Part shown: piece by piece, positions 719 to 59,523 of the stretch | Position numbering within the stretch: position 1 is the first letter of the stretch | Layout of the letters: each line of letters starts with the position of its first letter | DNA from: Rufibacter sp. DG15C | GTDB lineage: Bacteria; Bacteroidota; Bacteroidia; Cytophagales; Hymenobacteraceae | DNA: 64,000 bases | Assembly: GCF_001577755.1 (NCBI RefSeq) | Contig: NZ_CP010776.1 | Location: forward strand, 2,108,001 to 2,172,000 | Direction: 5' to 3' | Made by a program: the position numbers and the translations under genes | Notes under the pieces: model-generated | What the model saw: only the letters and a program-made list of their open reading frames with translations | Databases searched by the model: none | What the model was told of the DNA's origin: nothing

Positions 719-756
719 CGTTTTTAGCCTGTTTTTCTGAAAACAGGCTAAAAACG
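719..756. repeat. 38-bp palindromic element, copy 1
   Basis: Arms CGTTTTTAGCCTGTTTT (719-735) and AAAACAGGCTAAAAACG (740-756) pair perfectly over 17 bp around a 4-base loop. It lies between two divergent genes. Compared with the family consensus, the G to A change in the left arm is matched by C to T in the right arm. Confidence 0.95.
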
Positions 757-3548: not shown

Positions 3549-3588
3549 AACGCCCGCTTTTCTATGGAGAGCGGGCGTTGTTGTTTTT
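3549..3588 (+). terminator. Intrinsic terminator of mutS
   Basis: A 10-bp stem, AACGCCCGCT (3549-3558) with AGCGGGCGTT (3570-3579), is followed by a T-rich tract. It stands directly before palindrome copy 2, which shows that the palindrome is separate from the real terminator. Confidence 0.75.
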
Positions 3589-3621
3589 GGCTTGTTTTGA
3601 CCAAAACAGGCTAAAAACAAC
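3580..3621. repeat. Palindromic element, copy 2
   Basis: The outer arms are GTTGTTTTTGGCTTGTTTT and AAAACAGGCTAAAAACAAC. The usual outer CG is replaced by TG with a matching CA, so pairing is kept. It lies between mutS and the tRNA genes. Confidence 0.85.
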
Positions 3622-3779: not shown

Positions 3780-3852
3780 GCGAAAGTAGCTCAGTTGGTA
3801 GAGCGCGACCTTGCCAAGGTCGAGGTCGCGGGTTCGAACCCCGTCTTTCGCT
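3780..3852 (+). tRNA. tRNA-Gly (anticodon GCC)
   Basis: A complete cloverleaf can be drawn. The acceptor GCGAAAG pairs with CTTTCGC, the D arm contains AGCTCAGTTGGTAGAGC, the anticodon loop TTGCCAA gives anticodon GCC, and the T arm carries GGTTCGAACCC. The discriminator base is T and CCA is not encoded. It is followed by tRNA-Leu 73 bases downstream. Confidence 0.97.
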
Positions 3853-3925
3853 CAGATTAAAGACGTTGCTTCGGTAACGTCTTTTGTTTATCTGCTCATT
3901 TTCATTTCTCCTGTAGAGATGAAAG

Positions 3926-4009
3926 GCCGGGATGGTGGAACTGGTAGACACGCAAGACTTAAAATCTTGTTTCCATTAGGAAGTGCGGGTTCGATTCCCG
4001 CTCCTGGTA
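3926..4009 (+). tRNA. tRNA-Leu (anticodon TAA)
   Basis: A class II tRNA with a long variable arm. The acceptor GCCGGGA pairs with TCCTGGT (G-T at both variable positions), the anticodon stem CAAGA/TCTTG encloses CTTAAAA with anticodon TAA, and the T loop is GGTTCGATTCCCG. CCA is not encoded. It is probably co-transcribed with tRNA-Gly. An AT-rich block begins right after it. Confidence 0.97.
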
Positions 4010-6687: not shown

Positions 6688-6729
6688 GTCGTTTTTGACC
6701 TGTTTCCCAGAAAACAAGCGAAAAACGAC
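6688..6729. repeat. Palindromic element, copy 3
   Basis: Arms GTCGTTTTTGACCTGTTT and AAAACAAGCGAAAAACGAC, with pairing extended by GTC/GAC outside the core. It lies between convergent genes. Confidence 0.85.
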
Positions 6730-8250: not shown

Positions 8251-8288
8251 CGTTTTTAGCTTATTTTTGCGGAATCAAGCAAAAAACG
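8251..8288. repeat. Palindromic element, copy 4 (degenerate centre)
   Basis: The outer arms CGTTTTTAGCTT and AAGCAAAAAACG are kept while the centre is mismatched. It lies between divergent genes. Confidence 0.75.
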
Positions 8289-8968: not shown

Positions 8969-11900
8969 TTACTGTTTTACTACCCTTTCAATGACAGTTA
9001 CCTCAGGAGTGCTTATTTTTAGTAAGTAGGTGCCCACTGCCAAGTTGGACAGGTCAACCTTTTGGGTGCCACCGCCTTGTACTTGGCTGGTTTGTACCAG
9101 GCGTCCGTCTAAGCTGTAAACCATGATAGTGACCTTAGTGTTAGAAAGGCTGCTCAAGTCTAAGTTGACAACGCTAGTAGTTGGGTTAGGGTAAGCGTTC
9201 AACTTGGTAGTGGACGTGGCCTCGGTTTTGATTTTCACCGCAATCACTTTGCTGTTTTCAGATGAGCCGTCAAGATCCACTTGCTTTAAGCGGTAGTAGA
9301 CAGTGCCCACTGGGCTAGTAGCATCTAAGAAGCTGTAGTTGAGGAGTAAGCTGCTGTTGCCAGCGCCTTTCACTTCACCTGTTGCTTGGAAGGTCTTGCC
9401 ATTGCTGCTGCGCTCCACCACAAATTTCGCGTTATTCTTCTCAGTGGCCGTTGACCAGTTTAATTGCACGCCTTTGGTTACTACGTGTCCTTCAAAGCTC
9501 ACCAGGGTTACTGGCAATGGATTGATAGGCGAGTTGGTTCTGTAGGCGTATTCTCCTTCATTATAGGTTTGCAAGGTAGCGCTACGGCCGCTGTTATCCG
9601 TGTCAAACAAATCTACCAAGCCGTCAAAGTCCGTGTCATGGTAGTAGATGCTTTCTTTGATTAGGTACAACGGTTTGTTGTTTTGCATGTTCAACCACGG
9701 TGCAGAATCATCTGCTCCTACTACATAGTAGCCTTTGCCGGTAGACGCTTCAAAGAGTCTTCCTCTGTTCTTCATTTCTTCCAGGGCTAGACCGTCCAGG
9801 TCTTCGTCAAAGGCTTCAATGTTGTCAGAAAGGTCATCATTGTCACTGTCTAGATCCAAGTAATCTGGAGTGCCGTCCTTGTCAGTGTCTGTTGGCGTGA
9901 TCATGGTGCCACCGGTAGTTTTGTCAAAACCGTCACTTAGACCGTCAAAATCACTGTCTGTTCCTAGGCCGTTCGCAAAGCCTAAAGTGGTCTGGGCTTC
10001 AATGTTGTCTAGGATGCCGTCATTGTCAGAGTCTACATCGGTTTGGTCAGAGAAGCCGTCTCCATCTGAGTCTGGGTTGGCTAAATTAGACACTCCGCTG
10101 TTGTTAGAGGTCTGAGCAGCAATTGGCATGCCATTAGCACTTACCGGTCCTGTAAAGTAACCCAACTCTGGGTTGTAGCCCGTTGAGGCCGCCGGAATTT
10201 TACCGCCATTGGCTTCTACCGCGTTTGGAATGCCGTCGCCGTCTTTGTCAATGTCATACCCTCTAATCAAGCCATCCAAGTCCCAATCAAACACATCATT
10301 GATGTCATCATTGTTCACGTCTCTGAAGGCACCGTAGGTAGCGTGTACAAAGGTTTTGTCTAAGAATCTATAGGTTCCATTGACAATGTCCATTGGATTG
10401 TAGCCTGCGTCTATTGGGTCTGCCAGTACGCCGTCATTGTTGTCGTCTAAGTCATTTACATCCAGTACGCCGTCTTTGTCCCAGTCTCCTGAAATAGAGT
10501 AGGTGATACTGGTAGTGCTCATGCCACCAAAGGCATCTGTTGTGGCTACATCAAACAAGTAAGTGCCTGGTACTACATTGAATCTATAGTCTACCTCTAG
10601 TTCACCATTGTTGGTGAGGCGCATGCCGGCAGGTAAAGATCCGCTTGCAATGGTTGCGTTGGTAATAGCGCCATCTGGGTCTGTTACTAGTGCCACACGG
10701 TCACCTGTTTTTAAGTTGAACATGTGTTTGTTATCCAGTAGAACTTGGGCAGTGGCCTCACGGTCTGTAACACTTAAATACACTACAGAAGAGTTGTTGC
10801 CATCTTTGGTGTTTCCACCGGAAGGATCATATTCAGCAGAGTAAGCCTTGTAAACAGTGTTGTTCAAAATGCCTATGGTGGTAGGCTCTACTTGCAAGGT
10901 AAGAGTGGCAGTGCCATTCACTGGCAGGCTAGGAATAGTCCAGGCTTGGGTGGCCGGATTGATGGACGTTCCTTCACTTGGTACGCCGCTGCCAGCTACC
11001 AGTGTTAAACCGGTGGCTAACTCTGCGCCAATGATGACATTGGTAGCCGTGTTAGGTCCTAAGTTGGTTGCCGTCACATTCACCACATATTTGCCCCCTA
11101 CATAATAAGGTCCGCTTACAATGTTGCTGCTAATCATGATGTCAGCTGAAGCTGATCCCTGAATGGTAGCGGTAGCACTATTGTTTGCCGTGATATTATC
11201 GTAGTTGCTTGAAGCGTTCACAGAAGCAGTGGTGCTGTAGCTACCGGCGCTTTGTGGTTTTACAGTTAAGACCAGCGTCTGGGCATTGGCAGCGCCCGGC
11301 AGAATGTCTGAACCTAGTGTCCAAAGACCCGTGGCTGCGTCATAGGTTCCTAATGAAGGCTTCGCGCTCACCAATGTAAGTCCGGCTGGGAGTTTGTCTT
11401 CAATCACCACTCCAGAGGCTGCATCTGGCCCGTTGTTTTGAACCTTTACCGTGAAGGTGCTTTCCTGGCCATTATAGAAGGTAGCAGAGGCGACAGTATT
11501 GGTTACAGCCAACTCGGCCACTGGTAAAATGTTCACCAAGGCAACCGCGGTGTTGTTTTCTGGGTTGTTGTCCGTTTGGCCAAGTTTGCTTACGCCGCCG
11601 CCTAGGTTTAACTGACCTGTTTGGTTAGGAATGCCGGTGATGACTAAAGTTTTGGATTCGCCTACTTGCAAAGTGCCAATGTTCCAAATGCCGGTTGAGG
11701 TGTCGTAAGAAGTACCGGTAGGAGGGAACAATCCCGTAAAATTGATAGCTCCCGTGCGCGTATCCTGCCCTTGTAATCCAGTGACAACATCTGGCCCATT
11801 ATTGGTTACTATGATGCGGAAAGTAGCCTCTGTAATATTATGATAGAACTTGCCAGTCGGGTCATTGCTGGTAATGGTGATAGAAGTGGCCACATCCGTA

Positions 11901-14900
11901 GACTTGTGTACCACTATAGGAGTAGTAGACGTGTTATTGGTAGTGTTGTCATCTACCTGCTCAGCTGTGCCTGTGCGGGTGGCGGTAAAATTGTAGGTTT
12001 TGTCACCTGTCACGCCGGTGTCAACTGTTGGGGTGCCTGTTAAGAATAACTGAGTGGAGGCGCCCGCTGCCAATGAAGGGATGTTCCATACGCCGTTGGC
12101 ATACGTTCCCACTCTGGGATCAGATCCAGTAAGGGTCATTCCGGCAGGGAGTGCCGCGCCAATGGTGATGTTAGTGGCCGCATCTGGACCGGTGTTGGTT
12201 ACTAATACCCTGAATGGCACTACATCTCCTGTATAATACTCAGTTTTGGGCGCCGAGGTAGCCACCGCAATGTCAGCCGTAATTACGCCAGAGCCAGACT
12301 GGATACTTGTTGAGGCGCTGTTGTTTCCTAATACAATGTCTTGTTCTGTATGCGTCTGGGTGGCCGTAGTAGTAATAACAGCACTCTGATTGATTCTGGC
12401 CGTGATCTGGAAAGTGGTAGATGCGCCGCTGGCCAAGGTGCCCACTGTCCAAAGGCCAGTTGTGGCATCGTAACTTGTGCTGGTTGAGCTGATAAATGTC
12501 AAGGATGCTGGCAGCTTATCTGTTACCACAACATTGGTAGCAGTACTTGGGCCATTGTTCTTCACGCCCACCGTAAAGGTCACAACGTCATTGGTGGCAT
12601 AGGTAGTGCCGGCAGCGGGAGACACGGTATTGGTCACCCCTAAATCTGCCGTTGGTTTTGCGGTAAAGCTAGAAGAAGCAGTATTGTTGCTTGCTTGAGC
12701 ATCATACTCCGTATGCGATTGAGTGCTTTGCAGGGTGTAGGTACCAGTGTTGGCTGCTTTAGCAAACACCGTTAGCGTCTGGCTAGCACCTGCAGCAATG
12801 CTACCTACCGTCCAAGTGCCTGTATTCTTATCAAAGCTTCCCAAGCTGGCGCTAGATCCGGTAATCTCCATGCCTGCCGGGATTGCGTTGGCTAATACAA
12901 CATTTGTAGCACTGTTAGGGCCGTTGTTGGTTGCTTTGACGGTGAATGTAACAATCTCGTTTTGGCCAGGGTTGGTATTGGACACAGAGCTGGTAACGGC
13001 AACATCTGCCACTGGTGCTACAGTGATGGTGTTAGAGGCGCTGTTATTTCCGCTGTTGGAATCTATCTCAAAGCCTGCACGGTTATCAAGACTGGCAGTA
13101 GTCGTCTTAGACTCTAACGTAGAGATTCGGGCTGTGAGCGTAAGGGTCTTTGTTTCGTTGATGGCTAAGGCGCCAACTGTCCAAACTCCGGTAGAAGCAT
13201 TATAGGCAGATGGGATAGTGCCTTCTAGCGTTAATCCAGCTGGTAGTTTGTCAGTGATAGAAACTCCGGTGGCTGCGTTAGGGCCAATATTGCGAGCCGT
13301 TATGGTGTAAGTCACCAAATCCCCGTTGTTGTAAGTGGATTTGTCACTGACGTTTTTCACCTCAATGTCGGCCGCAGGCTGTACGGCAATTGTGGCTGTG
13401 GCGCTGTTATTGTTAGTAACGTTGTCTGCTTCTGTATGTGTCTGCGTGGCTGTGGCGGCAATAGAGCCTGTCACCAATGGTTGTGCCGTGATGGTAAGCG
13501 TTTTAGAAGCGCCCACCGCCAACGTGCCCACCGTCCAGATGCCTGTGCCTGAATTATAGTTAGTAGCGTCTGAAGAGCTGACAAACGTTAATTTGCTGGC
13601 ATCCAGCTTATCTGTTACTTGTATGTTGGTGGCAGGGATAGGGCCGTTGTTGGTGACAGTGACGGTATATGTAAAGGGTTGGCCCATTATGTAAGTGCCC
13701 GCAGAAGCTACATTGGTAACGGCTACATCTGCGCTACAATCATAATTGAAAGCAGCTGTTTGCGTAGAAGAACCAGTGTAGCCATACGTCCAGGTATTAA
13801 CGGTTTTCAAATCACCAGCCGTAGTAGAAGCTGAGCCCCAGGCGTGTGCTCCCGTTGTAGATACAACACCATATAACTCAGTTTGCGGCGAAGGAAAGGT
13901 GGTGGTAGGTAAGTTGGAGTCGTCCCAGAATAAAAGACCATTGTAGTTTGAGCCCGCAACAGGACGCACATCTTCTACTCTAAAGCCGCCTACGTTGGCT
14001 TCGGCATCCCAAACCGGGAAATGGATAGGAGCACTGTTGTTCCTGAAAAAGTAGTCCAAACTTGTACCTTTGGCTACGGCTTGGCCAAGGCCGTTCAAAC
14101 CGTTCCATTCAACCGTGCGGGCTCCTTTGGAACCAGTAGATTCCAGCAACACGTCAGAAGAACCAGGTTGGTAGCCGGCCACTCCGTTTAAGTTAATTAA
14201 GACAATGAAGGTACTGCTCTCTGTCGTGTTTAAGCTGAAGATTGATTTTCCGCCGTTGGTAGCAGTGTTACATACAGAGGCAACGCCTACGGTAAAGGTT
14301 GGGGCTGTGGCAGAGGGCCAGATGGACACATCTGGGTTGTTTACAAAGTTGAATAACTCTGGGTAATCTGTTTGGGTCAGTTGACTTTTTCTTCTGTCTG
14401 CATTTGAAGAACCTGCAGCCGTGGTAGAGCCATATTTGTTGGTCACAAACCTGAAAAAGTTCTGAGGGGCAATGCCGGCCAACTCAACCTTCTTCACGAA
14501 ATAGGCATTTGCTTGATCCTCACTTGGAATAAGCGGGAACATGTTAAAGTTCTTAGAGAAAACATTAGTGGTTCCGCCGGCAGAGAATGACCAGAGTTTG
14601 CTGCGCATGCGGCCAGGCTTTTCAGCGCCAGCGGCATCTATTACCGTAAAATCCCAAAGATCATAAACAGAGAATCTTTGACCATCCGCCATGTTGGCTT
14701 CCCCTACTTGCTCAAATTCTACCCAGTAATCCTGATCAGCACCTGTATCATTCAAAAACCCAAGAGGGTCATAGCCGGTAGTGTTGTAGGCTCTTCCATT
14801 AGTGGTGTGTTTGGGTCCTACATTCACTTGAGCTGCAGTGCCAATTACCCCATTTTGAGCATTCAACAACATGTCATTGGTAGAGTTTGTATTGTTGGTC

Positions 14901-15313
14901 AACGTAGTACGTTGGACAATAACACCCACTTGGTCTGTGCTGCTGGCTGCTCTTCTAATGGTGATGATCAAGTCATCTTGATTGGCGGTTCCTGCTTGGT
15001 CATGAATTGCTCTACGCACACCGTAAAACAAGCGCTCACCGCTTTTCACCCTAATCAATAATCTATGATCTGACGAAAAGGTAGCACCGTTGCGGCTAAA
15101 TCCAGAAGGCTTCAAGAAACTAAGCGATGTGATAGACACCCCACTAGCACTAGGAAAGTTGGCATCATGGGCCAAATAACCAGCTTTGTCATTGTTGGGA
15201 TCTGTTAATGCTGCCGTAGACAGGTTAGGTGTTAGTTGTTTGGATCCTTCACCGTGCATGGTGAGTGGGAGCAGGAACAAAACAATTAGGGCTAGGAGTA
15301 CGGGGTGTTTCAT
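8969..15313 (-). CDS. Giant DUF11-repeat surface protein with T9SS sorting domain
   Basis: A 2114-residue secreted protein. A signal peptide (MKHPVLLALIVLFLLPL) is followed by an N-terminal region of about 500 residues with no family I can name. Eight DUF11 domains follow, each with the V-x-N-x-G-P-x-x-A-T signature, from about residue 525 to 1500. A junction segment then leads to several thrombospondin type 3-like calcium-binding runs (DSDGDGFSD, DVDSDNDGILD) from about 1590 to 1860. The last 80 residues (AYPNPTTSVVNLDL to VIERVVKQ) form a type A sorting domain, so export by type IX secretion and cell-surface or extracellular location are expected. An adhesive or structural role is inferred from architecture only. 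It is transcribed alone. Confidence 0.9.
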   Translation of the reverse strand: MKHPVLLALIVLFLLPLTMHGEGSKQLTPNLSTAALTDPNNDKAGYLAHDANFPSASGVSITSLSFLKPSGFSRNGATFSSDHRLLIRVKSGERLFYGVRRAIHDQAGTANQDDLIITIRRAASSTDQVGVIVQRTTLTNNTNSTNDMLLNAQNGVIGTAAQVNVGPKHTTNGRAYNTTGYDPLGFLNDTGADQDYWVEFEQVGEANMADGQRFSVYDLWDFTVIDAAGAEKPGRMRSKLWSFSAGGTTNVFSKNFNMFPLIPSEDQANAYFVKKVELAGIAPQNFFRFVTNKYGSTTAAGSSNADRRKSQLTQTDYPELFNFVNNPDVSIWPSATAPTFTVGVASVCNTATNGGKSIFSLNTTESSTFIVLINLNGVAGYQPGSSDVLLESTGSKGARTVEWNGLNGLGQAVAKGTSLDYFFRNNSAPIHFPVWDAEANVGGFRVEDVRPVAGSNYNGLLFWDDSNLPTTTFPSPQTELYGVVSTTGAHAWGSASTTAGDLKTVNTWTYGYTGSSTQTAAFNYDCSADVAVTNVASAGTYIMGQPFTYTVTVTNNGPIPATNIQVTDKLDASKLTFVSSSDATNYNSGTGIWTVGTLAVGASKTLTITAQPLVTGSIAATATQTHTEADNVTNNNSATATIAVQPAADIEVKNVSDKSTYNNGDLVTYTITARNIGPNAATGVSITDKLPAGLTLEGTIPSAYNASTGVWTVGALAINETKTLTLTARISTLESKTTTASLDNRAGFEIDSNSGNNSASNTITVAPVADVAVTSSVSNTNPGQNEIVTFTVKATNNGPNSATNVVLANAIPAGMEITGSSASLGSFDKNTGTWTVGSIAAGASQTLTVFAKAANTGTYTLQSTQSHTEYDAQASNNTASSSFTAKPTADLGVTNTVSPAAGTTYATNDVVTFTVGVKNNGPSTATNVVVTDKLPASLTFISSTSTSYDATTGLWTVGTLASGASTTFQITARINQSAVITTTATQTHTEQDIVLGNNSASTSIQSGSGVITADIAVATSAPKTEYYTGDVVPFRVLVTNTGPDAATNITIGAALPAGMTLTGSDPRVGTYANGVWNIPSLAAGASTQLFLTGTPTVDTGVTGDKTYNFTATRTGTAEQVDDNTTNNTSTTPIVVHKSTDVATSITITSNDPTGKFYHNITEATFRIIVTNNGPDVVTGLQGQDTRTGAINFTGLFPPTGTSYDTSTGIWNIGTLQVGESKTLVITGIPNQTGQLNLGGGVSKLGQTDNNPENNTAVALVNILPVAELAVTNTVASATFYNGQESTFTVKVQNNGPDAASGVVIEDKLPAGLTLVSAKPSLGTYDAATGLWTLGSDILPGAANAQTLVLTVKPQSAGSYSTTASVNASSNYDNITANNSATATIQGSASADIMISSNIVSGPYYVGGKYVVNVTATNLGPNTATNVIIGAELATGLTLVAGSGVPSEGTSINPATQAWTIPSLPVNGTATLTLQVEPTTIGILNNTVYKAYSAEYDPSGGNTKDGNNSSVVYLSVTDREATAQVLLDNKHMFNLKTGDRVALVTDPDGAITNATIASGSLPAGMRLTNNGELEVDYRFNVVPGTYLFDVATTDAFGGMSTTSITYSISGDWDKDGVLDVNDLDDNNDGVLADPIDAGYNPMDIVNGTYRFLDKTFVHATYGAFRDVNNDDINDVFDWDLDGLIRGYDIDKDGDGIPNAVEANGGKIPAASTGYNPELGYFTGPVSANGMPIAAQTSNNSGVSNLANPDSDGDGFSDQTDVDSDNDGILDNIEAQTTLGFANGLGTDSDFDGLSDGFDKTTGGTMITPTDTDKDGTPDYLDLDSDNDDLSDNIEAFDEDLDGLALEEMKNRGRLFEASTGKGYYVVGADDSAPWLNMQNNKPLYLIKESIYYHDTDFDGLVDLFDTDNSGRSATLQTYNEGEYAYRTNSPINPLPVTLVSFEGHVVTKGVQLNWSTATEKNNAKFVVERSSNGKTFQATGEVKGAGNSSLLLNYSFLDATSPVGTVYYRLKQVDLDGSSENSKVIAVKIKTEATSTTKLNAYPNPTTSVVNLDLSSLSNTKVTIMVYSLDGRLVQTSQVQGGGTQKVDLSNLAVGTYLLKISTPEVTVIERVVKQ

Positions 15314-16014: not shown

Positions 16015-17007
16015 ATGCAGACGGACGAACTCTTATTTCAGGAACGGATTCGGGAGCACCAGCTTAAGATAAAGCAGGTGTTCAGGGAAGTGGGCAAAGT
16101 AGTGGTGGGCCAGCAGTACATGGTCAACCGCCTACTCATTGGCTTGTTTACCAATGGCCACATTCTACTGGAAGGAGTGCCAGGTCTGGCTAAGACGCTA
16201 ACCATCAATACGCTGGCCAAGGTCTTGCACCTCAACTTCTCCCGTATTCAGTTCACGCCAGACTTGCTGCCCTCTGACTTGATTGGCACCATGATCTACA
16301 ACCAAAGCTCGTCAGCCTTTGAAGTAAAGAAAGGACCCATCTTCGCGAATTTGATTTTAGCGGATGAGGTGAACCGCTCGCCCGCCAAGGTGCAGTCCGC
16401 TTTGCTAGAGGCCATGCAGGAGAAGCAGGTGACCATCGGGGATAAAACCTATCGCCTGGACTTGCCCTTCCTGGTGCTGGCCACCCAAAATCCGGTAGAG
16501 CAAGAAGGAACTTATCCGTTGCCCGAAGCGCAGGTGGACCGCTTTATGATGAAGGTCTATGTAGACTATCTGACCAAGGCAGATGAACTGGAAGTGATGC
16601 GCCGGATGTCCAACCTGTCGTACAGCAGTACGGTCAACACCATCTTAACCAAACAGGACATCTTTGACATCCGGAACGCCATTAACCAGGTGCAGATTTC
16701 TGAGACGCTTGAGCGCTATATTATTGAGTTGGTCTTCGCCTCAAGGCGCCCCGCTGATTATGATTTGAACGACTTCGCGCAGTACCTGCAGTTTGGGGTT
16801 TCGCCAAGGGCCAGTATTGCCTTGAACCTGGCTGCAAAAGCCACCGCCTTCTTTGATGAACGCGATTACGTGTTGCCAGAAGATATCAAGGAGATTGCCT
16901 CAGACGTGCTAAGCCACCGCATCATCCTAAACTATGAAGCAGAGGCAGACAATGTACAGACCAAGGACTTCGTGGAGTCTATCCTGCGGAAAGTGCCTAT
17001 CAGTTAA
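16015..17007 (+). CDS. MoxR-family AAA+ ATPase
   Basis: A 330-residue AAA+ ATPase of the MoxR group, thought to act as a chaperone that helps metal-cofactor or complex assembly, usually with VWA-domain partners. Walker A is GVPGLAKT (54-61) and Walker B LILADEVN (113-120). The sensor region ATQNPVEQEGTYPLPEAQVDRF is intact apart from sequence shown only in part here, and a C-terminal lid follows. MoxR genes normally lie next to DUF58 and VWA genes. Here neither follows; the next gene is about 400 bases away on the other strand. It therefore appears to be an orphan copy, and its client is unknown. Confidence 0.93.
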   Translation: MQTDELLFQERIREHQLKIKQVFREVGKVVVGQQYMVNRLLIGLFTNGHILLEGVPGLAKTLTINTLAKVLHLNFSRIQFTPDLLPSDLIGTMIYNQSSSAFEVKKGPIFANLILADEVNRSPAKVQSALLEAMQEKQVTIGDKTYRLDLPFLVLATQNPVEQEGTYPLPEAQVDRFMMKVYVDYLTKADELEVMRRMSNLSYSSTVNTILTKQDIFDIRNAINQVQISETLERYIIELVFASRRPADYDLNDFAQYLQFGVSPRASIALNLAAKATAFFDERDYVLPEDIKEIASDVLSHRIILNYEAEADNVQTKDFVESILRKVPIS

Positions 17008-17037
17008 AAGAGAAGCTCAAGTCTATCAAATACACTG

Positions 17038-17083
17038 AAGCCGTTTTTGGCCTACTTTCCAGAAAGTAGGCCAAAAACGGCTT
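17038..17083. repeat. Palindromic element, copy 5 (perfect 21-bp arms)
   Basis: Left arm 17038-17058 and right arm 17063-17083 pair without mismatch around the loop CCAG. The core CCTACTTT/AAAGTAGG differs from the family CCTGTTTT/AAAACAGG at two positions on both arms, and pairing extends outward through AAGC/GCTT. Confidence 0.97.
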
Positions 17084-17236
17084 CAGCTTTTAGCGCCTAT
17101 CCAACTTGTTTCTCTCATGACTACATCTGTAGAGTGGCCTGCTTATAGGTGCCTTTGCTTAGGAAGGAAAACCTTCAAGGTTGCCTATTAAAGATGCTGA
17201 TTCAAGCTGGATGGCATCAAATCAACTTAGCGAATA

Positions 17237-17282
17237 CGGTCGTTTTTGGCATATTTTCAGTAAAACAGTCCAAAAACGACCG
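17237..17282. repeat. Palindromic element, copy 6
   Basis: The outer arms CGGTCGTTTTTGG and CCAAAAACGACCG pair fully, while the inner left arm (CATATTTT) has diverged from the right (AAAACAGT). It lies 153 bases after copy 5 in the same intergenic region. Confidence 0.9.
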
Positions 17283-21767: not shown

Positions 21768-21809
21768 TCCGTTTTTGGCCTGATTTCCCGAAAGTAACCG
21801 AAAAACGGA
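21768..21809. repeat. Palindromic element, copy 7
   Basis: The outer arms TCCGTTTTTGG and CCGAAAAACGGA pair apart from a slight offset, and the centre is degenerate. It lies between the divergent receptor and ccmB genes. Confidence 0.8.
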
Positions 21810-23494: not shown

Positions 23495-23533
23495 CGTTTT
23501 TGGCCTGTTTTTGTAAAAAGAGGCCAAAAAAGG
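23495..23533. repeat. Palindromic element, copy 8
   Basis: CGTTTTTGGCCTGTTTT pairs with a changed right arm (AAAAAGAGGCCAAAAAAGG). It begins three bases after the ccmD stop codon and splits ccmBCD from ccmE. Confidence 0.85.
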
Positions 23534-26933: not shown

Positions 26934-27791
26934 ATGCAACCAGACTCTAATCCGCTTTCAAGTTCTTCTAGCCAATTGACCAAAGTAGCCATCATAGGCG
27001 CAGGCAACGTAAGCACGCACTTAGCTACTGGGTTGAAAGCGGCGGGCGTAGAGGTAGTTTGGGTGTACAGTCGCACAGAAAGGCATGCGCAAGAGTTGGC
27101 GCAACAAGTCCAAAGTCAAGCCATCACCAATGTTGATTTTACCGTAGCGCCGCTGGCGGATATCTATCTGCTTTCCATTCCAGACCAGGCTTTGGATCAG
27201 TTGGCGAGAGAAGCGGTTTTTCCAGCCAATGTCTTGGTGGTGCATACCTCGGGGGCTCAGCCTTTGCAGGTGCTTTCGTCTATTTCTGGAGTAAGGAGAG
27301 GCGTCTTCTATCCCTTGCAGACATTCAGCAAAGAAAAGGCCGTGGATTGGCAGACAATTCCCATTTGTGTAGAAGCGGAAAGACCAGAAGACGAGAGAAT
27401 TTTAAAGGAACTGGGCAAACTGTTAAGCAATCAGGTTGTAATCCTGCAGGGAGAGGCGCGCAAGAAATTGCACGTGGCCGCCGTCTTCGCGTGTAACTTC
27501 ACCAACCACTTGTGGGGCATAGCGCAGGAATTGTTGCAGAAGGCGCAATTGCCTACGCATTTGCTGGAGCCGCTCATGCAGGAGACACTGGAGAAGGCCA
27601 GGCAGTTTCCGCCGTTCATGGTGCAGACCGGACCGGCGCAACGCAATGACAAGAATACCATTCAGGCGCATCTGCAATTGTTGGCCGGCAATCCGCAGTA
27701 CCAGCAGGTGTACCAGACCCTTACCCGAAGCATTCAAACCACCGCCTCCGAAAATGGCCTGATTTCCGGAAAACAGGCCAAAAACGACTGA
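26934..27791 (+). CDS. Rossmann-like / DUF2520 domain oxidoreductase
   Basis: A 285-residue predicted NAD(P)-binding protein. After a serine-rich start (MQPDSNPLSSSSSQ) comes the dinucleotide motif VAIIGAGNVSTHLATGL, an F420-reductase/ProC-like Rossmann domain to about residue 125. A helical DUF2520 domain follows (KKLHVAAVFACNFTNHLW, TGPAQRNDKNTIQAHLQLL). The family is widespread and its reaction is not firmly known. The ATG at 26934 is chosen because an upstream ATG lies inside palindrome copy 9. The last 13 or so codons (NGLISGKQAKND) are encoded by palindrome copy 10, so the element supplies the C-terminus. Confidence 0.85.
   Translation: MQPDSNPLSSSSSQLTKVAIIGAGNVSTHLATGLKAAGVEVVWVYSRTERHAQELAQQVQSQAITNVDFTVAPLADIYLLSIPDQALDQLAREAVFPANVLVVHTSGAQPLQVLSSISGVRRGVFYPLQTFSKEKAVDWQTIPICVEAERPEDERILKELGKLLSNQVVILQGEARKKLHVAAVFACNFTNHLWGIAQELLQKAQLPTHLLEPLMQETLEKARQFPPFMVQTGPAQRNDKNTIQAHLQLLAGNPQYQQVYQTLTRSIQTTASENGLISGKQAKND
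27749..27786. repeat. Palindromic element, copy 10, inside the end of a coding region
   Basis: CGAAAATGGCCTGATTTCC and GGAAAACAGGCCAAAAACG. The right arm is canonical and the left arm carries changes. The element lies entirely within the DUF2520 gene and ends three bases before its TGA stop. Confidence 0.9.
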
Positions 27792-30387: not shown

Positions 30388-30425
30388 CGTTTTTGACCTG
30401 ATTTCCGGAAAACAGGCCAAAAACG
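30388..30425. repeat. Palindromic element, copy 11
   Basis: CGTTTTTGACCTGATTTCC and GGAAAACAGGCCAAAAACG. It begins at the base immediately after the TAG stop of the UbiA-family gene. Confidence 0.95.
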
Positions 30426-33605: not shown

Positions 33606-33630
33606 AAGCGTTCTGGTCTCACGTAAACGT

Positions 33631-33667
33631 CGTTTTGCCCTAATTTTCAAGAAATAGCCCAAAACCG
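33631..33667. repeat. Palindromic element, copy 13 (degenerate)
   Basis: CGTTTTGCCCTAATTTTC and AAATAGCCCAAAACCG. Spacing is kept and most outer pairs remain (for example GCCC facing GCCC breaks while TTTTG/CAAAA pairs). It lies between convergent genes. Confidence 0.65.
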
Positions 33668-33748: not shown

Positions 33749-34267
33749 TCAGAAGTTGATCAACTCCATCTCAAACATGATAGGCGTGTTGGGAGGAATA
33801 GATCCACTGCCGTAACGACCATAGGCCAATTGCGAAGGAATGATTAAAAGGCCTTGTTCGCCTTTGCTCATCAAAAGCACACCTTCTTCCCAGCCTTTGA
33901 TCACTTTGTTCTGGCCCAACACAAATTTGAAAGTCTGCGCACGGTCATAAGAAGAGTCAAACTTTCGGCTGTCTTCTACGATTTTTCCTACGTAGTGCAT
34001 TTCTACCTGCTGGCCTTTTACTGGCTTTACGCCGTTGCCTTTGGTTTTTTGTACATAGTATAAACCAGACGCAGTGCGCGTATAATCTGTAATATCATAA
34101 TATGCCAGATAATCCTTGATCAATTTGTCGTCAAACTCTGCCTGTGCGGCGGCATCAAAGTTGTCATAGGGGTTTATATTGTCATCCTTACAACCCATTG
34201 AGGCTGTAAGCAGACACAGAGACAACACTAATTGCCACAGCACGCTTTTTCTTACCAACTGTTGCAT
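33749..34267 (-). CDS. FKBP-type peptidyl-prolyl isomerase lipoprotein
   Basis: A 172-residue lipoprotein with a signal ending in the lipobox ASMGC (Cys26) and an FKBP domain that isomerises proline peptide bonds. Conserved active-site parts are visible: VEMHYVGKI, FDSSYDR, FVLGQNKVIKGWEEGVLLM, GEQGLLIIPSQLAYG and the final PPNTPIMFEMELINF. It is the last gene of a three-gene unit with another FKBP 11 bases upstream and an NrnA-like gene before that. In gliding Flavobacteria a similar lipoprotein (GldI) occupies such a neighbourhood as I recall, but motility here is not shown. Confidence 0.9.
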   Translation of the reverse strand: MQQLVRKSVLWQLVLSLCLLTASMGCKDDNINPYDNFDAAAQAEFDDKLIKDYLAYYDITDYTRTASGLYYVQKTKGNGVKPVKGQQVEMHYVGKIVEDSRKFDSSYDRAQTFKFVLGQNKVIKGWEEGVLLMSKGEQGLLIIPSQLAYGRYGSGSIPPNTPIMFEMELINF

Positions 34268-34278
34268 CTTGTTAAGAA

Positions 34279-35262
34279 TTATAGACCTGGACCGGCAGGA
34301 CCCGCTGGGTTCACCGGCGTGTCTTTGATGTCTACCAATTCAATGTCAAAACGAAGGATAGAGTTAGCCGGCATGTCTGCGCCGCGGGCCATGGCACCGT
34401 AACCCATTGGCGAAGGAATCAACAAGATGCCTTTGCTGCCTTTGTTAAACTGCTGTAAGCCTTCTTCCCAGCCTTTGATCACCTGGCCTTGGCCTAATGG
34501 GAATTCAATTGGCTTGCCACCGTTAGACTTGGCAGAAGAGTCAAACTCTTTACCGTTTAACAAGGTGCCTTTGTATTGTACGCTCACAGTTTTACCGGCA
34601 GTAGCGTTTGCGCCTGTGCCTGGCTGAGAGATTACATAATACACACCGTTGGCCGTTTTCTGAGCCGTCAAGTTGTTCTTCTTGATGTACTCCTGAATCA
34701 ACTTGTCGTCAATAGGGGCTTGCTTTAAGGCTTTCTCTTCCATTGCCTTCTGCTGGCGCTCCATCATTTTAGGATAGTCAGCCATAGCCTCTTGCTCAGT
34801 CTGCAGGTTCACTGCCTTCACGAAGAAGGTCAAAAAGCTTCCTTTTTTGATGAACGGAGGAAGTGGGGCTTTGAAGGTCTTGGCAAACAAAGTGTCTGCG
34901 TTGATTTTGAACACGGCGCTGTCGCCTTTGTCTAGCAACAAGAATGCTTCTTCAATGCTGCCTTTGTTAGGCGTCTCTACCAGTTTAATCTGGATAGGCA
35001 TGGCGTTGTCTTTGGTACTGAACAGCAAAGAGTCTTTCTCTGTGCGGTATTCCATCTCAAAGGTCATCACTTTGCCCATTTTGGTAGAATCTACCTTGGC
35101 GGCATCTTTTACCTCATAGCCACCGTCTTTGCCAGCCGTGTATAGTTTGTATTCTAGGCCAGAGGCGGTTTTCTGAAATGAGTCATTGCCCAAGTTCTTG
35201 CACGACGGGGCAAAAAGGGTTATTGCCAAGGCTGGCAACAAGTAGATTGATTTTTTTAACAT
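34279..35262 (-). CDS. Two-domain FKBP-type peptidyl-prolyl isomerase lipoprotein
   Basis: A 327-residue lipoprotein with lipobox FAPSC (Cys21). The N-terminal half (about 25-155) resembles a degenerate FKBP domain lacking the canonical active-site residues. The C-terminal half (about 200-315) is a canonical FKBP domain with VSVQYKGTLLNGKEFDSS, FPLGQGQVIKGWEEGLQQF, GSKGILLIPSPMGYG and PANSILRFDIELVDI. A linker helix of charged residues connects them (MMERQQKAMEEKALKQ). The tail is proline- and glycine-rich. It lies between the NrnA-like gene (34 bases) and the single-domain FKBP (11 bases). A folding role in the periplasm or at the outer membrane is inferred. Confidence 0.9.
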   Translation of the reverse strand: MLKKSIYLLPALAITLFAPSCKNLGNDSFQKTASGLEYKLYTAGKDGGYEVKDAAKVDSTKMGKVMTFEMEYRTEKDSLLFSTKDNAMPIQIKLVETPNKGSIEEAFLLLDKGDSAVFKINADTLFAKTFKAPLPPFIKKGSFLTFFVKAVNLQTEQEAMADYPKMMERQQKAMEEKALKQAPIDDKLIQEYIKKNNLTAQKTANGVYYVISQPGTGANATAGKTVSVQYKGTLLNGKEFDSSAKSNGGKPIEFPLGQGQVIKGWEEGLQQFNKGSKGILLIPSPMGYGAMARGADMPANSILRFDIELVDIKDTPVNPAGPAGPGL

Positions 35263-36503: not shown

Positions 36504-36923
36504 ATGGCTGGAAACGTAACGTTCACCATGATTAAACCAGATGCCGTGCAGGACAACCACATTGGCGGTATCACTAAAATGATGGAAGAGGCTGGCTTTA
36601 GAGTTGTAGCCATGAAAAAGACGCGCCTGACTGAGGAGCGTGCCGGTAAGTTCTACGAGGTGCACAAGGAGCGTCCGTTCTATGGTGACCTGGTAAAATA
36701 CATGAGCTCTGGCCCTATCGTGGCCATGATCTTAGAGAAAGACAACGCCGTGTTGGATTTCCGTACCTTAATTGGCGCCACCAACCCAGCCCAGGCTGAG
36801 AACGGTACCATCAGAAAGCAATACGCTAAGTCTGTTGAGGCCAACGCCGTACACGGTTCTGATTCTGATGAGAACGCCCAGATTGAAGGAGACTTCTTCT
36901 TCTCTGCTGACGAGCGTTTCTAG
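36504..36923 (+). CDS. ndk: Nucleoside diphosphate kinase
   Basis: A 139-residue enzyme that transfers the terminal phosphate of ATP to nucleoside diphosphates. Landmarks are [11 protein letters not shown] at the start, the [10 protein letters not shown] segment, [18 protein letters not shown] and the catalytic histidine His117 in NAVHGSDS. The protein ends [11 protein letters not shown]. Its last two codons and TAG stop (CGT TTC TAG) coincide with the start of a palindromic element. The ending ERF is also common in other Bacteroidota NDK proteins as I recall, so the element may have formed on existing codons. Confidence 0.97.
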
Positions 36924-36952
36924 TCTGTTTTCTAGAAAATACCCCAAAAAAG
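36915..36952. repeat. Palindromic element, copy 14, overlapping the ndk stop codon
   Basis: Reads CGTTTCTAGTCTGTTTTC then AGAAAATACCCCAAAAAAG, aligned base for base with the family consensus but with several mismatches. The ndk stop lies at 36921-36923, inside the left arm. Confidence 0.65.
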
Positions 36953-36987: not shown

Positions 36988-37027
36988 CCGTTTTTGGGCT
37001 GGTTTAGCGAAAACAGACTGAAAACGG
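36988..37027. repeat. Palindromic element, copy 15
   Basis: CCGTTTTTGGGCTGGTTTAGC and AAAACAGACTGAAAACGG. It shares an unusual inner segment (GGGCTGGTTTAGCGAAAA) with copy 16 about 1.3 kb downstream. Confidence 0.85.
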
Positions 37028-38262: not shown

Positions 38263-38300
38263 TGTTTTTGGGCTGGTTTAGCGAAAAGAGGGCAAAAACG
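38263..38300. repeat. Palindromic element, copy 16
   Basis: TGTTTTTGGGCTGGTTTAGC and AAAAGAGGGCAAAAACG. It shares 18 or more identical central bases with copy 15, a private variant of these two neighbours. Confidence 0.85.
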
Positions 38301-39406: not shown

Positions 39407-39444
39407 CGTTTTCGGCCTGTTTTACAGAAAACAGGCCGAAAACG
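39407..39444. repeat. Palindromic element, copy 17 (perfect, with compensatory change)
   Basis: CGTTTTCGGCCTGTTTT and AAAACAGGCCGAAAACG pair over 17 bp around ACAG. Here T-A at position 7 of the consensus is replaced by C-G on both arms. Confidence 0.97.
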
Positions 39445-40874: not shown

Positions 40875-40916
40875 TCCGTTTTTGGCCTGTTTTACCCAAA
40901 ACAAGCCAAAAACGGA
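40875..40916. repeat. Palindromic element, copy 18
   Basis: TCCGTTTTTGGCCTGTTTT and AAAACAAGCCAAAAACGGA, with one mismatch inside. The TCC/GGA flanks pair. It sits between two minus-strand genes. Confidence 0.93.
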
Positions 40917-42832: not shown

Positions 42833-42870
42833 CGTTTTTGGGCTCTTTTCTGGGAAACAGGTCAAAAACG
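42833..42870. repeat. Palindromic element, copy 19
   Basis: CGTTTTTGGGCTCTTTTC and GAAACAGGTCAAAAACG. The outer 7 pairs are intact and the inner part is degenerate. It lies between divergent genes. Confidence 0.8.
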
Positions 42871-46460: not shown

Positions 46461-46498
46461 CGTTTTTGGCCTGTTTTCACCAGAGCAAGCCAAAAACG
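46461..46498. repeat. Palindromic element, copy 20
   Basis: CGTTTTTGGCCTGTTTTC and GAGCAAGCCAAAAACG. The left arm is canonical and the right arm has two changes. Confidence 0.85.
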
Positions 46499-46853: not shown

Positions 46854-46890
46854 CGTTTTTAGCCACTTTTCCGTAAAACAGGTCAAAATC
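46854..46890. repeat. Palindromic element, copy 21
   Basis: CGTTTTTAGCCACTTTTCC and AAAACAGGTCAAAATC. The outer pairs are mostly kept and the inner part differs. It ends 10 bases before the next ATG. Confidence 0.75.
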
Positions 46891-46900
46891 AGAATTTCCT

Positions 46901-48334: not shown

Positions 48335-48382
48335 AAAGCCGTTTTTGGCCTGATTTCCTAAAAACAGGCCAAAAACGGCTTT
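48335..48382. repeat. Palindromic element, copy 22 (extended arms)
   Basis: AAAGCCGTTTTTGGCCTG and CAGGCCAAAAACGGCTTT pair perfectly in the outer part; the centre has one extra A. The flanks AAAGC/GCTTT extend the pairing beyond the core, as in copy 5. Confidence 0.95.
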
Positions 48383-51436: not shown

Positions 51437-51475
51437 CGTTTTCAGGCCATTTCCTTGAAAAACAGGCTAAAAACG
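51437..51475. repeat. Palindromic element, copy 23
   Basis: CGTTTTCAGGCCATTTCC and AAAACAGGCTAAAAACG. The right arm is canonical and the left arm degenerate. It lies between convergent genes. Confidence 0.8.
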
Positions 51476-52159: not shown

Positions 52160-52196
52160 CGTTTTCGGCCTGATTTTCAGAAAACAGGTGAAAATC
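52160..52196. repeat. Palindromic element, copy 24
   Basis: CGTTTTCGGCCTGATTTTC and AAAACAGGTGAAAATC. The outer pairs are partly lost and the centre is kept. Confidence 0.75.
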
Positions 52197-52307
52197 AAAA
52201 AAGTGGAAACAAAACAGGCGCGGGCTTTCTAAACATCCGTCAAAAACCGGTATCTTCCAGAATCCATTCCACTCACGTTTACCCAAGTGATTAGCGTACC
52301 TATTAAA

Positions 52308-53332: not shown

Positions 53333-53382
53333 GAAAGCCGTTTTCGTCCTGTTTTCCAGAAAGCAGGCCGAAAACGGCTTTC
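53333..53382. repeat. Palindromic element, copy 25 (longest arms)
   Basis: GAAAGCCGTTTTCG and CGAAAACGGCTTTC pair outside, with the canonical CCTGTTTTCC centre. The position-7 C-G change seen in copy 17 recurs here. Pairing runs eight bases beyond the usual core end. Confidence 0.95.
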
Positions 53383-55820: not shown

Positions 55821-55868
55821 ATTTCCGTTTTTGCCTTGTTTTCTGAGAATCAGGCAGAAAACGGAAAT
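55821..55868. repeat. Palindromic element, copy 26 (extended flank pairing)
   Basis: ATTTCCGTTTTTGCC and GGCAGAAAACGGAAAT. The outer six pairs go beyond the usual core. It lies between the divergent asd and lamin-tail genes. Confidence 0.9.
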
Positions 55869-55921: not shown

Positions 55922-58489
55922 ATGCGGCAACTCTTTCTTTTGATAATGCTATGGTTTGCCCTTTGCGGCACGGCTAGCGCCCAGCTTCGGGAGACATTTG
56001 CAGACGGTGATTTTACCCAAAATCCTGCTTGGACCGGTGACGTGGCCTCTTTTCAGGTGAACGCCGCCCAGCAACTGCAAAGCAAAGGTCCCGCCGTGAC
56101 GGGCACCACCCTGCAACTCATGACGCCCAATACGCTGGCCGTTGGCGTGCAATGGGAGTTCTACCTGCAACTGAACTTTGCCACCTCCTCAGGCAATTAC
56201 GCCGAAGTCCACCTCACTTCAGACAACCAAGATTTGAAAGGCGCTCACCAAGGCTATTTCGTGCGCATTGGCGGCACTGAGGACGAGGTAAGCCTCTACC
56301 GTAAAGACGGCGGCACCGCCGTGCGCATCATCAATGGTCCAGATAAGACCGTGGCCACTTCCAACAACTTGCTTAGAGTGCGCGTGACCAGAACCGAGGC
56401 CTCTGTCTGGAACCTGGAAGTGGACATGGGGGCCACCGGCCAGAACTATGTAAGTCAAGGCACGGCGCAAGACGCCCGCTACACCACGTCGGTCTACACC
56501 GGCGTGCGCTTCACCTACAGCCAGGCCAACGCCCAAAAGTTTTACTTCGATGACTTCTCCATCAAAGACATTGGCCTGCCCACCCTCACTGAGACCAAAG
56601 TGCTTGGACCGAGGTCTCTGGAAGTGAAATTCTCAGAGCCTGTCACCGAAACCTCAGTGCAGAACTTGCAGAACTATCTGCTCAATGGTAATCGGAATCC
56701 CAATTCTGTTGAAATAGTAGACCCCAGTACCATCCGGCTTACTTTCGCCTCAGATTTTGCCACAGGAGCCAACACCCTCCAGATGGCGGAGATTGTGGAC
56801 GTTCAAGGCAACACCGCCCGTAATTTGCAGACCACCTTTGACTACGTGCCCATTGCCCAACCCGGCGACGTGCGCATCACGGAGATTTATGCTGACCTGA
56901 ACCCACTGCAGGACCTGCCTGCCGCAGAGTTCTTCGAGGTTCATAACCAAAGCGACAAGACCTTTAACCTGCAGAACTGGAAATACTCAGACGCGACCAC
57001 CAATACGGCCATTTTTCCATCCTACCTACTCAAGCCCGGTGCCTATGTGATTGTAACCGCCGCCGCAGATACGGCTTTGTACAAGCCCTTCGGGGAAGTG
57101 GTAGGTTTGTCCAGCTTTCCGTCTTTAAATGACGCGGGAGATGAGGTAGAGCTTTACAACGCGCAAGGACAGTTGCTGGACAAAGTAACATACACCAACG
57201 CATGGTACCGCGATGCTCAGAAGAAGGAGGGAGGCTGGACCTTGGAACTGGTGGATGCGAACACCGCCTGCACGGGCGCTGTCGCCTGGAAAGCCTCTGA
57301 ATATCCAAGCGGCGGAACTCCGGGTAAGGTAAACTCTGTGCAAGGGAAGGATGCGTCGGGTCCTATTTTAGTGCAAGCTGTGACGACCAGCCCAGATAAA
57401 GTAAAACTCACCTTTGACGAACCTCTGGACAGTCTGGCGGCGGCTTTTTCCTTGTACAGGATTTCGCCCGAAGTGGTAGTTTCAAAAGTGCAAGTATTGC
57501 CCTCAGGATTTTCTGAGGTGGAATTGACCTTGCAGGCGCCGTTACGGGAGAATGTAAAGTATACCGTCACCGTGCAGGGTGTGAGAGATTGCGCAGGGAA
57601 TGTAAGCGCGAGTCAGCAGATGGTGACGCTAGTCTTGCCAGCCGAAGCACAGAAAGGTGATGTGGTCATCAATGAGATTTTGTTCAACCCCGGCACCGGC
57701 GGCGTGGACTTTGTGGAACTGGTCAACCGCACCGATAAGTACCTGAACCTGCAGAACTGGCAAGTGGCCAATCGCGAGAAGGGCGAAATCACCAATGCCA
57801 AGACCATTTCCGCGCAACCTCTTCTACTAGCGCCCAATGCCTATTGGGTACTCACGGCAGATGCCAAGATTCTTCGGGAGCAATATCCCAACGGCAAACC
57901 CGACACCTTCCATCAACTTACCTCGCTGCCCTCTTTCAACGATGATGCCGGGAATGTGGTCTTGCTGCTACCGGATAAAACTGTCATGGATGAAGTAGCC
58001 TACAGCGCAGACCAGCATTTCAAATTGATAAAGGATCCAGAGGGCATTTCCCTGGAAAGGATGCAGCTCGCCGGGCCATCGGTGGCGGCTAATTTCCATT
58101 CGGCGGCCACGGCCGTGAAGGCGACTCCGGGCTATCTGAATTCCCAAGCCCAAACCGCCGCTACGCCGCAAAGCAAGAAACTTACGCTAGAGCCCAAGGT
58201 GTTCACACCAGACGGTGATGGGGTGGACGATGTGCTGTTGATGCAATTCTCAGACTTAAGAACCGGAACCGTAGCCCAGGTAACCATCTACGACGGCTCT
58301 GGAAGACCAGTGCGGAAACTGGCTAACAACTCCTTGGCTGGCAGTGAGAACCTGGTTCAGTGGGACGGGCTCACGGACAAAGGCACCAAAGCGGCCATCG
58401 GGTATTATATAGTGTTGGTGGAGCTGTTCAACCTGAACGGCGAGAAGGAAATTATCAAAGAGACTACCGTGGTAGGCGGTCGTTTTTAG
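55922..58489 (+). CDS. Exported lamin-tail domain protein with T9SS-type C-terminal domain
   Basis: An 855-residue exported protein. A signal peptide (MRQLFLLIMLWFALCGTASA) is followed by a lectin-like beta-sandwich (about 25-215), an Ig-like (Big_5-like) domain, a first lamin-tail domain (GDVRITEIYADLNP and AEFFEVHNQSDKTFNLQNW), another Ig-like domain, and a second lamin-tail domain (GDVVINEILFNPGTGGVDFVELV). The C-terminal module (VFTPDGDGVDDVLLMQF to IIKETTVVGGRF) looks like the gliding/T9SS type B tail. Its last codons CGT TTT and TAG stop are the first bases of palindrome copy 27. The role is unknown; surface attachment is expected. Confidence 0.85.
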   Translation: MRQLFLLIMLWFALCGTASAQLRETFADGDFTQNPAWTGDVASFQVNAAQQLQSKGPAVTGTTLQLMTPNTLAVGVQWEFYLQLNFATSSGNYAEVHLTSDNQDLKGAHQGYFVRIGGTEDEVSLYRKDGGTAVRIINGPDKTVATSNNLLRVRVTRTEASVWNLEVDMGATGQNYVSQGTAQDARYTTSVYTGVRFTYSQANAQKFYFDDFSIKDIGLPTLTETKVLGPRSLEVKFSEPVTETSVQNLQNYLLNGNRNPNSVEIVDPSTIRLTFASDFATGANTLQMAEIVDVQGNTARNLQTTFDYVPIAQPGDVRITEIYADLNPLQDLPAAEFFEVHNQSDKTFNLQNWKYSDATTNTAIFPSYLLKPGAYVIVTAAADTALYKPFGEVVGLSSFPSLNDAGDEVELYNAQGQLLDKVTYTNAWYRDAQKKEGGWTLELVDANTACTGAVAWKASEYPSGGTPGKVNSVQGKDASGPILVQAVTTSPDKVKLTFDEPLDSLAAAFSLYRISPEVVVSKVQVLPSGFSEVELTLQAPLRENVKYTVTVQGVRDCAGNVSASQQMVTLVLPAEAQKGDVVINEILFNPGTGGVDFVELVNRTDKYLNLQNWQVANREKGEITNAKTISAQPLLLAPNAYWVLTADAKILREQYPNGKPDTFHQLTSLPSFNDDAGNVVLLLPDKTVMDEVAYSADQHFKLIKDPEGISLERMQLAGPSVAANFHSAATAVKATPGYLNSQAQTAATPQSKKLTLEPKVFTPDGDGVDDVLLMQFSDLRTGTVAQVTIYDGSGRPVRKLANNSLAGSENLVQWDGLTDKGTKAAIGYYIVLVELFNLNGEKEIIKETTVVGGRF

Positions 58490-58518
58490 GCTGTTTTCTA
58501 GAAATCAGGCCAAAAACG
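58481..58518. repeat. Palindromic element, copy 27, overlapping a stop codon
   Basis: CGTTTTTAGGCTGTTTTC and GAAATCAGGCCAAAAACG. The first nine bases are the last two codons and stop of the lamin-tail gene. The arms are otherwise close to consensus. Confidence 0.9.
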
Positions 58519-59368: not shown

Positions 59369-59406
59369 CCGTTTTTAGCCTGTTTTCCAGGAAATACGTC
59401 AAAACC
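59369..59406. repeat. Palindromic element, copy 28
   Basis: CCGTTTTTAGCCTGTTTTCC and GGAAATACGTCAAAACC. The left arm is canonical and the right arm degenerate. It starts immediately after the TSUP stop. Confidence 0.8.
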
Positions 59407-59523
59407 AGTACCCAATACTAGGCAATCCCCCATCGCCTGTTTTAGAATACCTCTTTACTATAAGTTTAGCGCAGCAGGAAGTCCCTGGTTGCCAATTGAT
59501 TTTTCAGACTTTAATCTACTTGT

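What the first reader, a model, noticed from the sequence alone, without database searches (positions are those of the whole stretch)
17038..17083. Compensatory changes and flank extension of the palindromes
Copy 5 carries CTACTTT/AAAGTAG where the family has CTGTTTT/AAAACAG, both arms changed together. Copies 17 and 25 have a C-G pair in place of T-A on both arms, copy 1 has an A-T pair in place of G-C. Outside the core, the flanks differ between copies but still pair: AAGC/GCTT (5, 22, 25), TCC/GGA (7, 18, 26), GTC/GAC (3, 6). Pairing preserved in different bases means the hairpin or its twofold symmetry is what is kept.
Basis: seen in the sequence. Interest (0 to 1): 0.75.

Follow-up and report, generated by a model that had tools for sequence, protein, structure and literature searches.

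The report
Rufibacter gene-end dyads, some within terminators
About 1,700 copies of a 38-letter mirror-symmetric DNA site, most often found just past the ends of genes, dot the chromosomes of the genus Rufibacter; most look like docking sites for an unknown DNA-binding protein, and about one in six, including this one, is also built into a transcription stop hairpin, which is where the paired changes come from.

Summary
The focal copy (17042-17079) forms a perfect 24-bp stem with its flanks, and the listed paired changes are in the window. In 584 kb of this genome (236 copies), copies whose flanks also pair for >=4 bp (39 copies, focal included) show strong core covariation (z=7.5). Copies without flank pairing (189) show none (z=-0.9). 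Two further species agree. The flank-paired copies carry a T-run after the stem on the transcribed strand (4.4 vs 2.2 T in 8 nt, p=2e-14), as intrinsic terminators do; their stems change by compensation between species (33 vs 9.8 expected).

The other ~80% behave as a double-stranded, dyad-symmetric site whose halves evolve independently: T/A-tracts 96-100% conserved while fourfold sites differ by 38%; 216 of 225 syntenic sites kept; no lone half-sites; present in all 16 genus genomes, essentially absent elsewhere; depleted on plasmids; species-specific "dialects". This genome has no detectable RAYT transposase. Best reading: binding site of an unidentified chromosome-organising or topology protein at transcription-unit ends, sometimes co-opted into terminators. 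The binder is not identified.

The parts
17042..17079 (.). Focal dyad core, 18/18 arm pairs
17035..17041 (.). Left flank of the focal copy (CTGAAGC), pairs with 17080-17086
   Evidence: a different 10-bp flank pairing stands at the orthologous copy in the closest relative G013
17080..17091 (.). Right flank GCTTCAG plus CTTTT tract: terminator-like 3' side for the + gene 16015-17007
719..756 (.). Dyad copy; A-T at arm position 8 on both arms
3582..3619 (.). Dyad copy
6690..6727 (.). Dyad copy
8251..8288 (.). Dyad copy (divergent region)
17241..17278 (.). Dyad copy with 4 flank pairs
21770..21807 (.). Dyad copy (divergent region); 13/18 arm pairs, RNA fold little better than shuffles (z -1.4)
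23495..23532 (.). Dyad copy
27749..27786 (.). Dyad copy
30388..30425 (.). Dyad copy, starts directly after a stop codon
32792..32829 (.). Dyad copy
33630..33667 (.).
36915..36952 (.). Dyad copy
36989..37026 (.). Dyad copy, 74 bp from the previous one
38263..38300 (.). Dyad copy
39407..39444 (.). Dyad copy; C-G at arm position 7 on both arms, no flank pairing
40877..40914 (.). Dyad copy
42833..42870 (.). Dyad copy (divergent region)
46461..46498 (.). Dyad copy
46854..46891 (.). Dyad copy
48340..48377 (.). Dyad copy with 5 flank pairs and TCTTTT after the stem (terminator class)
51438..51475 (.). Diverged dyad copy (likely with an indel)
52160..52197 (.). Dyad copy
53339..53376 (.). Dyad copy with 6 flank pairs and C-G at arm position 7
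55826..55863 (.). Dyad copy with 5 flank pairs (divergent region)
58481..58518 (.). Dyad copy
59370..59407 (.). Dyad copy, starts 1 nt after a stop codon
60651..60688 (.). Dyad copy

Best explanation
SHOWN: the palindrome is a genus-wide (Rufibacter), high-copy, dyad-symmetric DNA site, cGTTTT-N8-TT-N6-AA-N8-AAAACg, held at fixed chromosomal positions, most often just after stop codons, with half-sites that evolve independently in most copies. SHOWN: in about one copy in six the flanks extend the palindrome into a longer stem followed by a T-run in the direction of transcription; it is there that core and flank change by compensatory substitution. INFERRED (strong): those copies are Rho-independent terminators whose upper stem is the site. 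INFERRED (moderate): the site itself is read as double-stranded DNA by a symmetric protein complex contacting four A/T tracts spaced about one helical turn apart. INFERRED (weak): because sites are chromosomal, about one per 2.5 kb, densest at transcription-unit ends and between convergent genes, and present in addition to terminators rather than in place of them, the protein most likely organises the nucleoid or handles supercoils or elongating polymerase at gene ends. The protein has not been identified.
For: Copy number and specificity: 236 copies in 584 kb, 0 in the reversed control, so about 1,700 per 4.14-Mb genome by extrapolation. The exact backbone occurs 946 times in this genome and 64-1449 times in each of 16 genus genomes, vs 0-2 in 23 genomes of other genera. 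In-place conservation: 216/225 syntenic sites shared with G013; positions 4-6, 15-16 and their mirrors 96-100% identical while flanks are about 50% and fourfold sites 62%. Independence of halves. No lone half-sites beyond control. Location: 80 of 236 start 0-19 nt after a stop; at least one site in 93% of convergent regions of 100-199 bp vs 23% of divergent ones; in tandem regions, terminator-like hairpins in 45/103 gene ends with a site vs 24/100 without (computed). Terminator subset. Chromosomal: 66 sites/140 kb of chromosome vs 6/80 kb of a plasmid-like contig in G012; 28/80 kb vs 1/80 kb in G008. Coding-region site retained even in a protein of 39% identity.
Against: No binder was found; HU copy number does not differ between Rufibacter and other genera. 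A share of the copies (77 of 590 intergenic ones) lie in divergent regions, at no gene end, so gene-end handling cannot be the whole function. Information content (44-51 bits) far exceeds the about 11 bits needed to find the sites, which is unusual for a simple binding site and more like a drive or copying process. The consensus shifts in concert between species. Weak residual pairing at positions 7 and 18 in the no-stem class. Spacing along the chromosome is not clearly regular.
Confidence: 0.6

Rival explanations
1. REPIN-like element: a non-autonomous mobile palindrome copied by a RAYT tyrosine transposase, with conservation due to turnover from a master sequence.
For: REPINs are two inverted half-sequences with a short spacer in high copy (PMC8049555). 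15 of 16 genus genomes have 1-6 Y1_Tnp-family genes of about 180-200 aa. Across the 15 genomes other than this one their number correlates with backbone count (rho 0.59, p 0.02; with this genome 0.44, p 0.09; not corrected for phylogeny).
Against: This genome has no Y1_Tnp match and no match to a relative's gene, yet has the same copy density as G013. 96% positional retention leaves little room for turnover, while T-tracts stay 96-100% identical against 38% fourfold divergence. No GTAG/CGTC tag in the flanks; no decayed lone halves; the genes are not consistently flanked by copies; sites are depleted on plasmids.
Confidence: 0.14
2. Self-recognition or uptake signal with molecular drive, comparable to neisserial DUS: sites are favoured because DNA carrying them is taken up and recombined, so they pile up wherever they do least harm.
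For: Species-specific consensus 'dialects' changing in place parallel DUS dialects (PMC3630211); information far above need; permissive placement plus some coding sites; partial overlap with terminators.
Against: Only complete dyads occur, never single half-sites; no uptake signal of this kind is known to me in Bacteroidota; the strong peak directly after stop codons is more than permissiveness predicts.
Confidence: 0.12
3. One reading: all copies are kept as hairpins (RNA or cruciform).
For: Flank and core compensatory changes are real and strong in the stem class.
Against: No covariation in most copies although the same test detects it with only 27-39 stem copies; no G.U preference on the transcribed strand; some copies fold little better than shuffles.
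Confidence: 0.08
4. Paired changes arise by mutation, through template switching or quasi-palindrome correction that copies one arm or flank onto the other, not by selection.
For: Would produce both-arm changes and flank extension at once.
Against: Flank stems depend on context (31/147 convergent, 56/366 tandem, 6/77 divergent) and in tandem regions are followed by a T-run on the sense side with no A excess upstream; the same loci carry stems of different sequence in both species (20 shared vs 4.9 expected); most copies keep mismatched arms.
Confidence: 0.06

Closest known systems
REP/BIME elements and REPINs with RAYT transposases
   Same: High-copy short palindromes, mostly intergenic; implicated in supercoiling, termination and mRNA stability (PMC3733652, PMC8049555)
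   Different: No GTAG/CGTC tag found, no detectable Y1/RAYT gene in this genome, positions fixed across species, half-sites without pairing constraint in most copies, no lone halves
BIME-2 / gyrase sites downstream of operons in E. coli
   Same: Enrichment downstream of transcription units; phased 10-bp composition in the extended gyrase motif (PMC6379681)
   Different: Here a precise 38-bp dyad with near-invariant T/A tracts, genus-specific; gyrase binding untested
DNA uptake sequences (Neisseriaceae dialects, Pasteurellaceae USS)
   Same: Thousands of copies and species dialects (PMC3630211); partial overlap with terminators (own knowledge for DUS)
   Different: Only complete dyads, never single units; uptake untested
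Rho-independent terminators
   Same: The flank-paired subset: stem followed by a T-run on the transcribed strand, compensatory stem evolution
   Different: Upper stem is a conserved genus-wide DNA site; most copies of that site are not in such stems

Membership tests
REP / REPIN-RAYT | RAYT (Y1_Tnp) gene in the genome | tested here: not met
   0 matches in own genome by family and by a relative's protein; 15 of 16 genus genomes do have such genes
REP / REPIN-RAYT | Conserved tetranucleotide tag (GTAG or CGTC) beside the palindrome | tested here: not met
   Flank positions 1-15 show no such tag; highest single-base frequency 0.62; tag definition from PMC3733652
REP / REPIN-RAYT | High copy, mostly intergenic palindrome | tested here: met
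REP / REPIN-RAYT | Mobility: insertion polymorphism between relatives | tested here: inconclusive
   9 of 225 sites missing in G013, surroundings rearranged, no clean empty site seen
Rho-independent terminator (flank-paired subset only) | Stem followed by a T-run on the sense strand | tested here: met
   4.36 vs 2.18 T in 8 nt, p 1.6e-14; no A excess upstream
Rho-independent terminator (flank-paired subset only) | Compensatory evolution of the stem | tested here: met
Rho-independent terminator (flank-paired subset only) | Termination in vivo or in vitro | not testable with these tools
   no expression data
DNA uptake sequence | Single units abundant | tested here: not met
   no excess of half-sites outside dyads
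DNA uptake sequence | Stimulates transformation | not testable with these tools
   needs experiment
Gyrase-binding BIME-2 type site | Gyrase binding or cleavage at the site | not testable with these tools
   needs Topo-seq or ChIP
Known RNA family | Rfam match at the copies | tested here: not met
   Rfam finds only two tRNAs in the window

The most novel reading that the evidence does not exclude
Rufibacter chromosomes are organised by a genus-specific protein that binds about 1,700 dyad sites placed mostly at the ends of transcription units (a sequence-addressed bacterial chromatin or topology system), whose binding specificity drifts between species so that over a thousand sites change dialect together, and whose sites are repeatedly recruited as the upper stem of terminators.
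Probability: 0.3. Interest if true: 0.85.

Novelty: new variant of a known kind. Interest (0 to 1): 0.62.

Why it matters
If right, this genus keeps a specific, position-fixed DNA site at most longer convergent gene ends and many other transcription-unit ends over large sequence divergence, without a transposase in the genome studied. It offers a clean system to ask how a bacterium marks gene ends, how more than a thousand binding sites change specificity together, and how DNA-level sites become RNA terminators. It also shows that a palindrome family can look like a conserved hairpin when only a minority of copies is one. No paper describing these sites was found in the held library.

Tried and rejected
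Hairpin or RNA conservation for all copies: rejected by permutation and G.U/A.C tests. Single uptake-type units: none. Own-genome RAYT: none. RAYT genes flanked by copies as in REP systems: not consistent. Clean insertion/empty sites: none visible. Regular spacing: weak at best; fewer gaps over 6 kb than the intergenic-placement null, but CV close to the null, and the null leaves out coding sites. Analogous abundant palindromes in sister genera: none with >=3 relatives in 20-80 kb each. HU family expansion as the binder: no difference between genera. Site as a replacement for terminators: not so, terminator-like hairpins co-occur with sites. My order-wide backbone scan had the wrong spacing (TTT/AAA where the backbone has TT/AA, so two bases too long) and is uninformative; the corrected pattern is. 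Loss of function in this genome: strict positions deviate 166 vs 72 relative to G013 although fourfold branch lengths are equal (3137 vs 3150), but the excess is position-specific (2, 3, 7, 9, 14, 16) and T4-T6 stay about 99%, so I read it as a dialect shift rather than decay. Limits: genes were called by a home-made codon-usage caller; sites were found with an ungapped symmetric profile; relatives were sampled, not read whole; no species tree was built.

Full report
Identity and extent. The window is G000:C1:2108001-2172000 of a single-contig 4.14-Mb genome. Relatives carrying a window protein at 76-79% identity are Rufibacter and Sabulibacter species, so the genus is taken to be Rufibacter. 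The palindrome has 28 copies in the window and 236 in a 584-kb sample around it, none in the reversed sequence. Extrapolated, about 1,700 copies per genome. The exact backbone GTTTT-N8-TT-N6-AA-N8-AAAAC occurs 946 times in this genome and in all 16 genus genomes (64-1449), against 0-2 in 23 genomes of other genera. Profile scans of five sister-genus samples find none.

Check of the observation. The focal copy folds as one 24-bp stem.

Is pairing what is kept? I permuted left against right arms between copies. Over all copies in this genome the number of matched pairs over 19 positions equals the permuted value (13.84 vs 13.84, z -0.03). Splitting by flank pairing, which is independent of the core, gives two populations. 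Copies with >=4 contiguous flank pairs: z 7.5 (n=39), 4.8 (n=28), 10.5 (n=27) in G000, G013, G006. Copies with <3: z -0.9, -2.6, 1.5 (n=189, 193, 139). Per position, the stem class covaries at many variable positions, the other class only weakly at 7 and 18, and negatively at 10. Between G000 and G013 orthologs, double changes that keep the pair are 33 vs 9.8 expected in the stem class (z 8.0) and 37 vs 29.9 in the other (z 1.4).

What the stem class is. Its stems are followed by a T-run on the transcribed strand (mean 4.36 T in 8 nt vs 2.18, p 1.6e-14 in tandem regions), with no A excess on the upstream side (2.30 vs 2.16, p 0.35). Stems are found at 31/147 convergent, 56/366 tandem and 6/77 divergent copies. 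At the same loci both species have stems, 20 shared vs 4.9 expected, often of different sequence. At the focal locus the flank is CTGAAGC/GCTTCAG here, and a different pairing of 10 bp or more (ending ...CTCAGAGGC/GCCTCTGAG...) in G013. This is how intrinsic terminators evolve; the site sits in their upper stem. In other species the same position downstream of the same gene shows ordinary terminator-like hairpins whose T-tract merges with the site (G002, G006; sequences).

What the rest is. Sites stay put: 216 of 225 syntenic sites are shared with G013. Fourfold sites differ by 38% between the two genomes (14,624 same of 23,422), and intergenic flanks match at about 50%, yet positions 4-6, 15-16 and their mirrors are 96-100% identical. 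Lone half-sites are not found above control. G.U mismatches on the sense strand are fewer than A.C (174 vs 228, 170 vs 201, 123 vs 173), which gives no support to an RNA-level constraint. The conserved tracts lie about 10, 8-9 and 10 bp apart, roughly one helical turn. I infer recognition as duplex DNA by a symmetric protein assembly.

Where they are. In the three samples together, 75 sites start 0-3 nt and 58 start 4-7 nt after a stop codon. Convergent regions of 100-199 bp have a site in 93% of cases in this genome (79% and 70% in the other two), divergent ones of that length in 23-38%. A 17-kb ribosomal protein cluster has none here, and gaps of almost the same length occur in G013 and G006. 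A few sites lie inside genes at the same place in different species, one in a protein of only 39% identity. In tandem regions terminator-like hairpins are more, not less, frequent where a site is present (45/103 vs 24/100; computed). Density is even at four other places of this chromosome (7-10 per 20 kb) but low on plasmid-like contigs of G012 and G008 (6 and 1 per 80 kb, against 66 per 140 kb and 28 per 80 kb on their chromosomes), and the few copies on the G012 contig do not follow that species' dialect.

Dialects. The consensus at positions 1, 7, 10, 12-14 and 17 differs between species while the tracts do not. At orthologous sites G000 has T at position 7 in 74 of 84 half-sites and G006 has G or A in 66 of 84. 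In this genome strict positions deviate more than in G013 despite equal neutral branch lengths, in a position-specific way.

Function. This is the weakest step. The pattern of location, chromosomal restriction and symmetry fits a nucleoid, topology or gene-end factor. REPIN-RAYT, uptake-drive, all-hairpin and template-switch readings are weighed as rivals. The binding protein is unknown and its identification is the decisive step.

Noticed in passing
G000 whole genome vs 15 genus relatives: This genome is the only one of 16 without a Y1_Tnp/RAYT-like gene, and its sites deviate from consensus more than those of its closest relative despite equal fourfold divergence.
   Followed up: partly
G000:C1 about 2260763-2277900: 17.1-kb stretch without any site (ribosomal protein, secY, rpoA cluster); gaps of almost the same length occur in G013 and G006.
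   Followed up: partly
G000:C1 about 2591666-2595655: A 3990-bp gene with three site-like sequences at the same positions in all three species; one is strong (score 45), one is weak.
   Followed up: partly
window 8969-15313 (-): 2114-aa ORF with internal repeats (families D4, D5).
   Followed up: no
window 33818-34497: Two 102-nt direct repeats 578 bp apart at 71% identity in neighbouring ORFs on the - strand (D6).
   Followed up: no
window 3780-4009: Two tRNA genes on the + strand (Rfam).
   Followed up: no
L232-L235 (G012:C2): 155-kb plasmid-like contig with duplicated efflux-type gene sets; few sites of this family.
   Followed up: no
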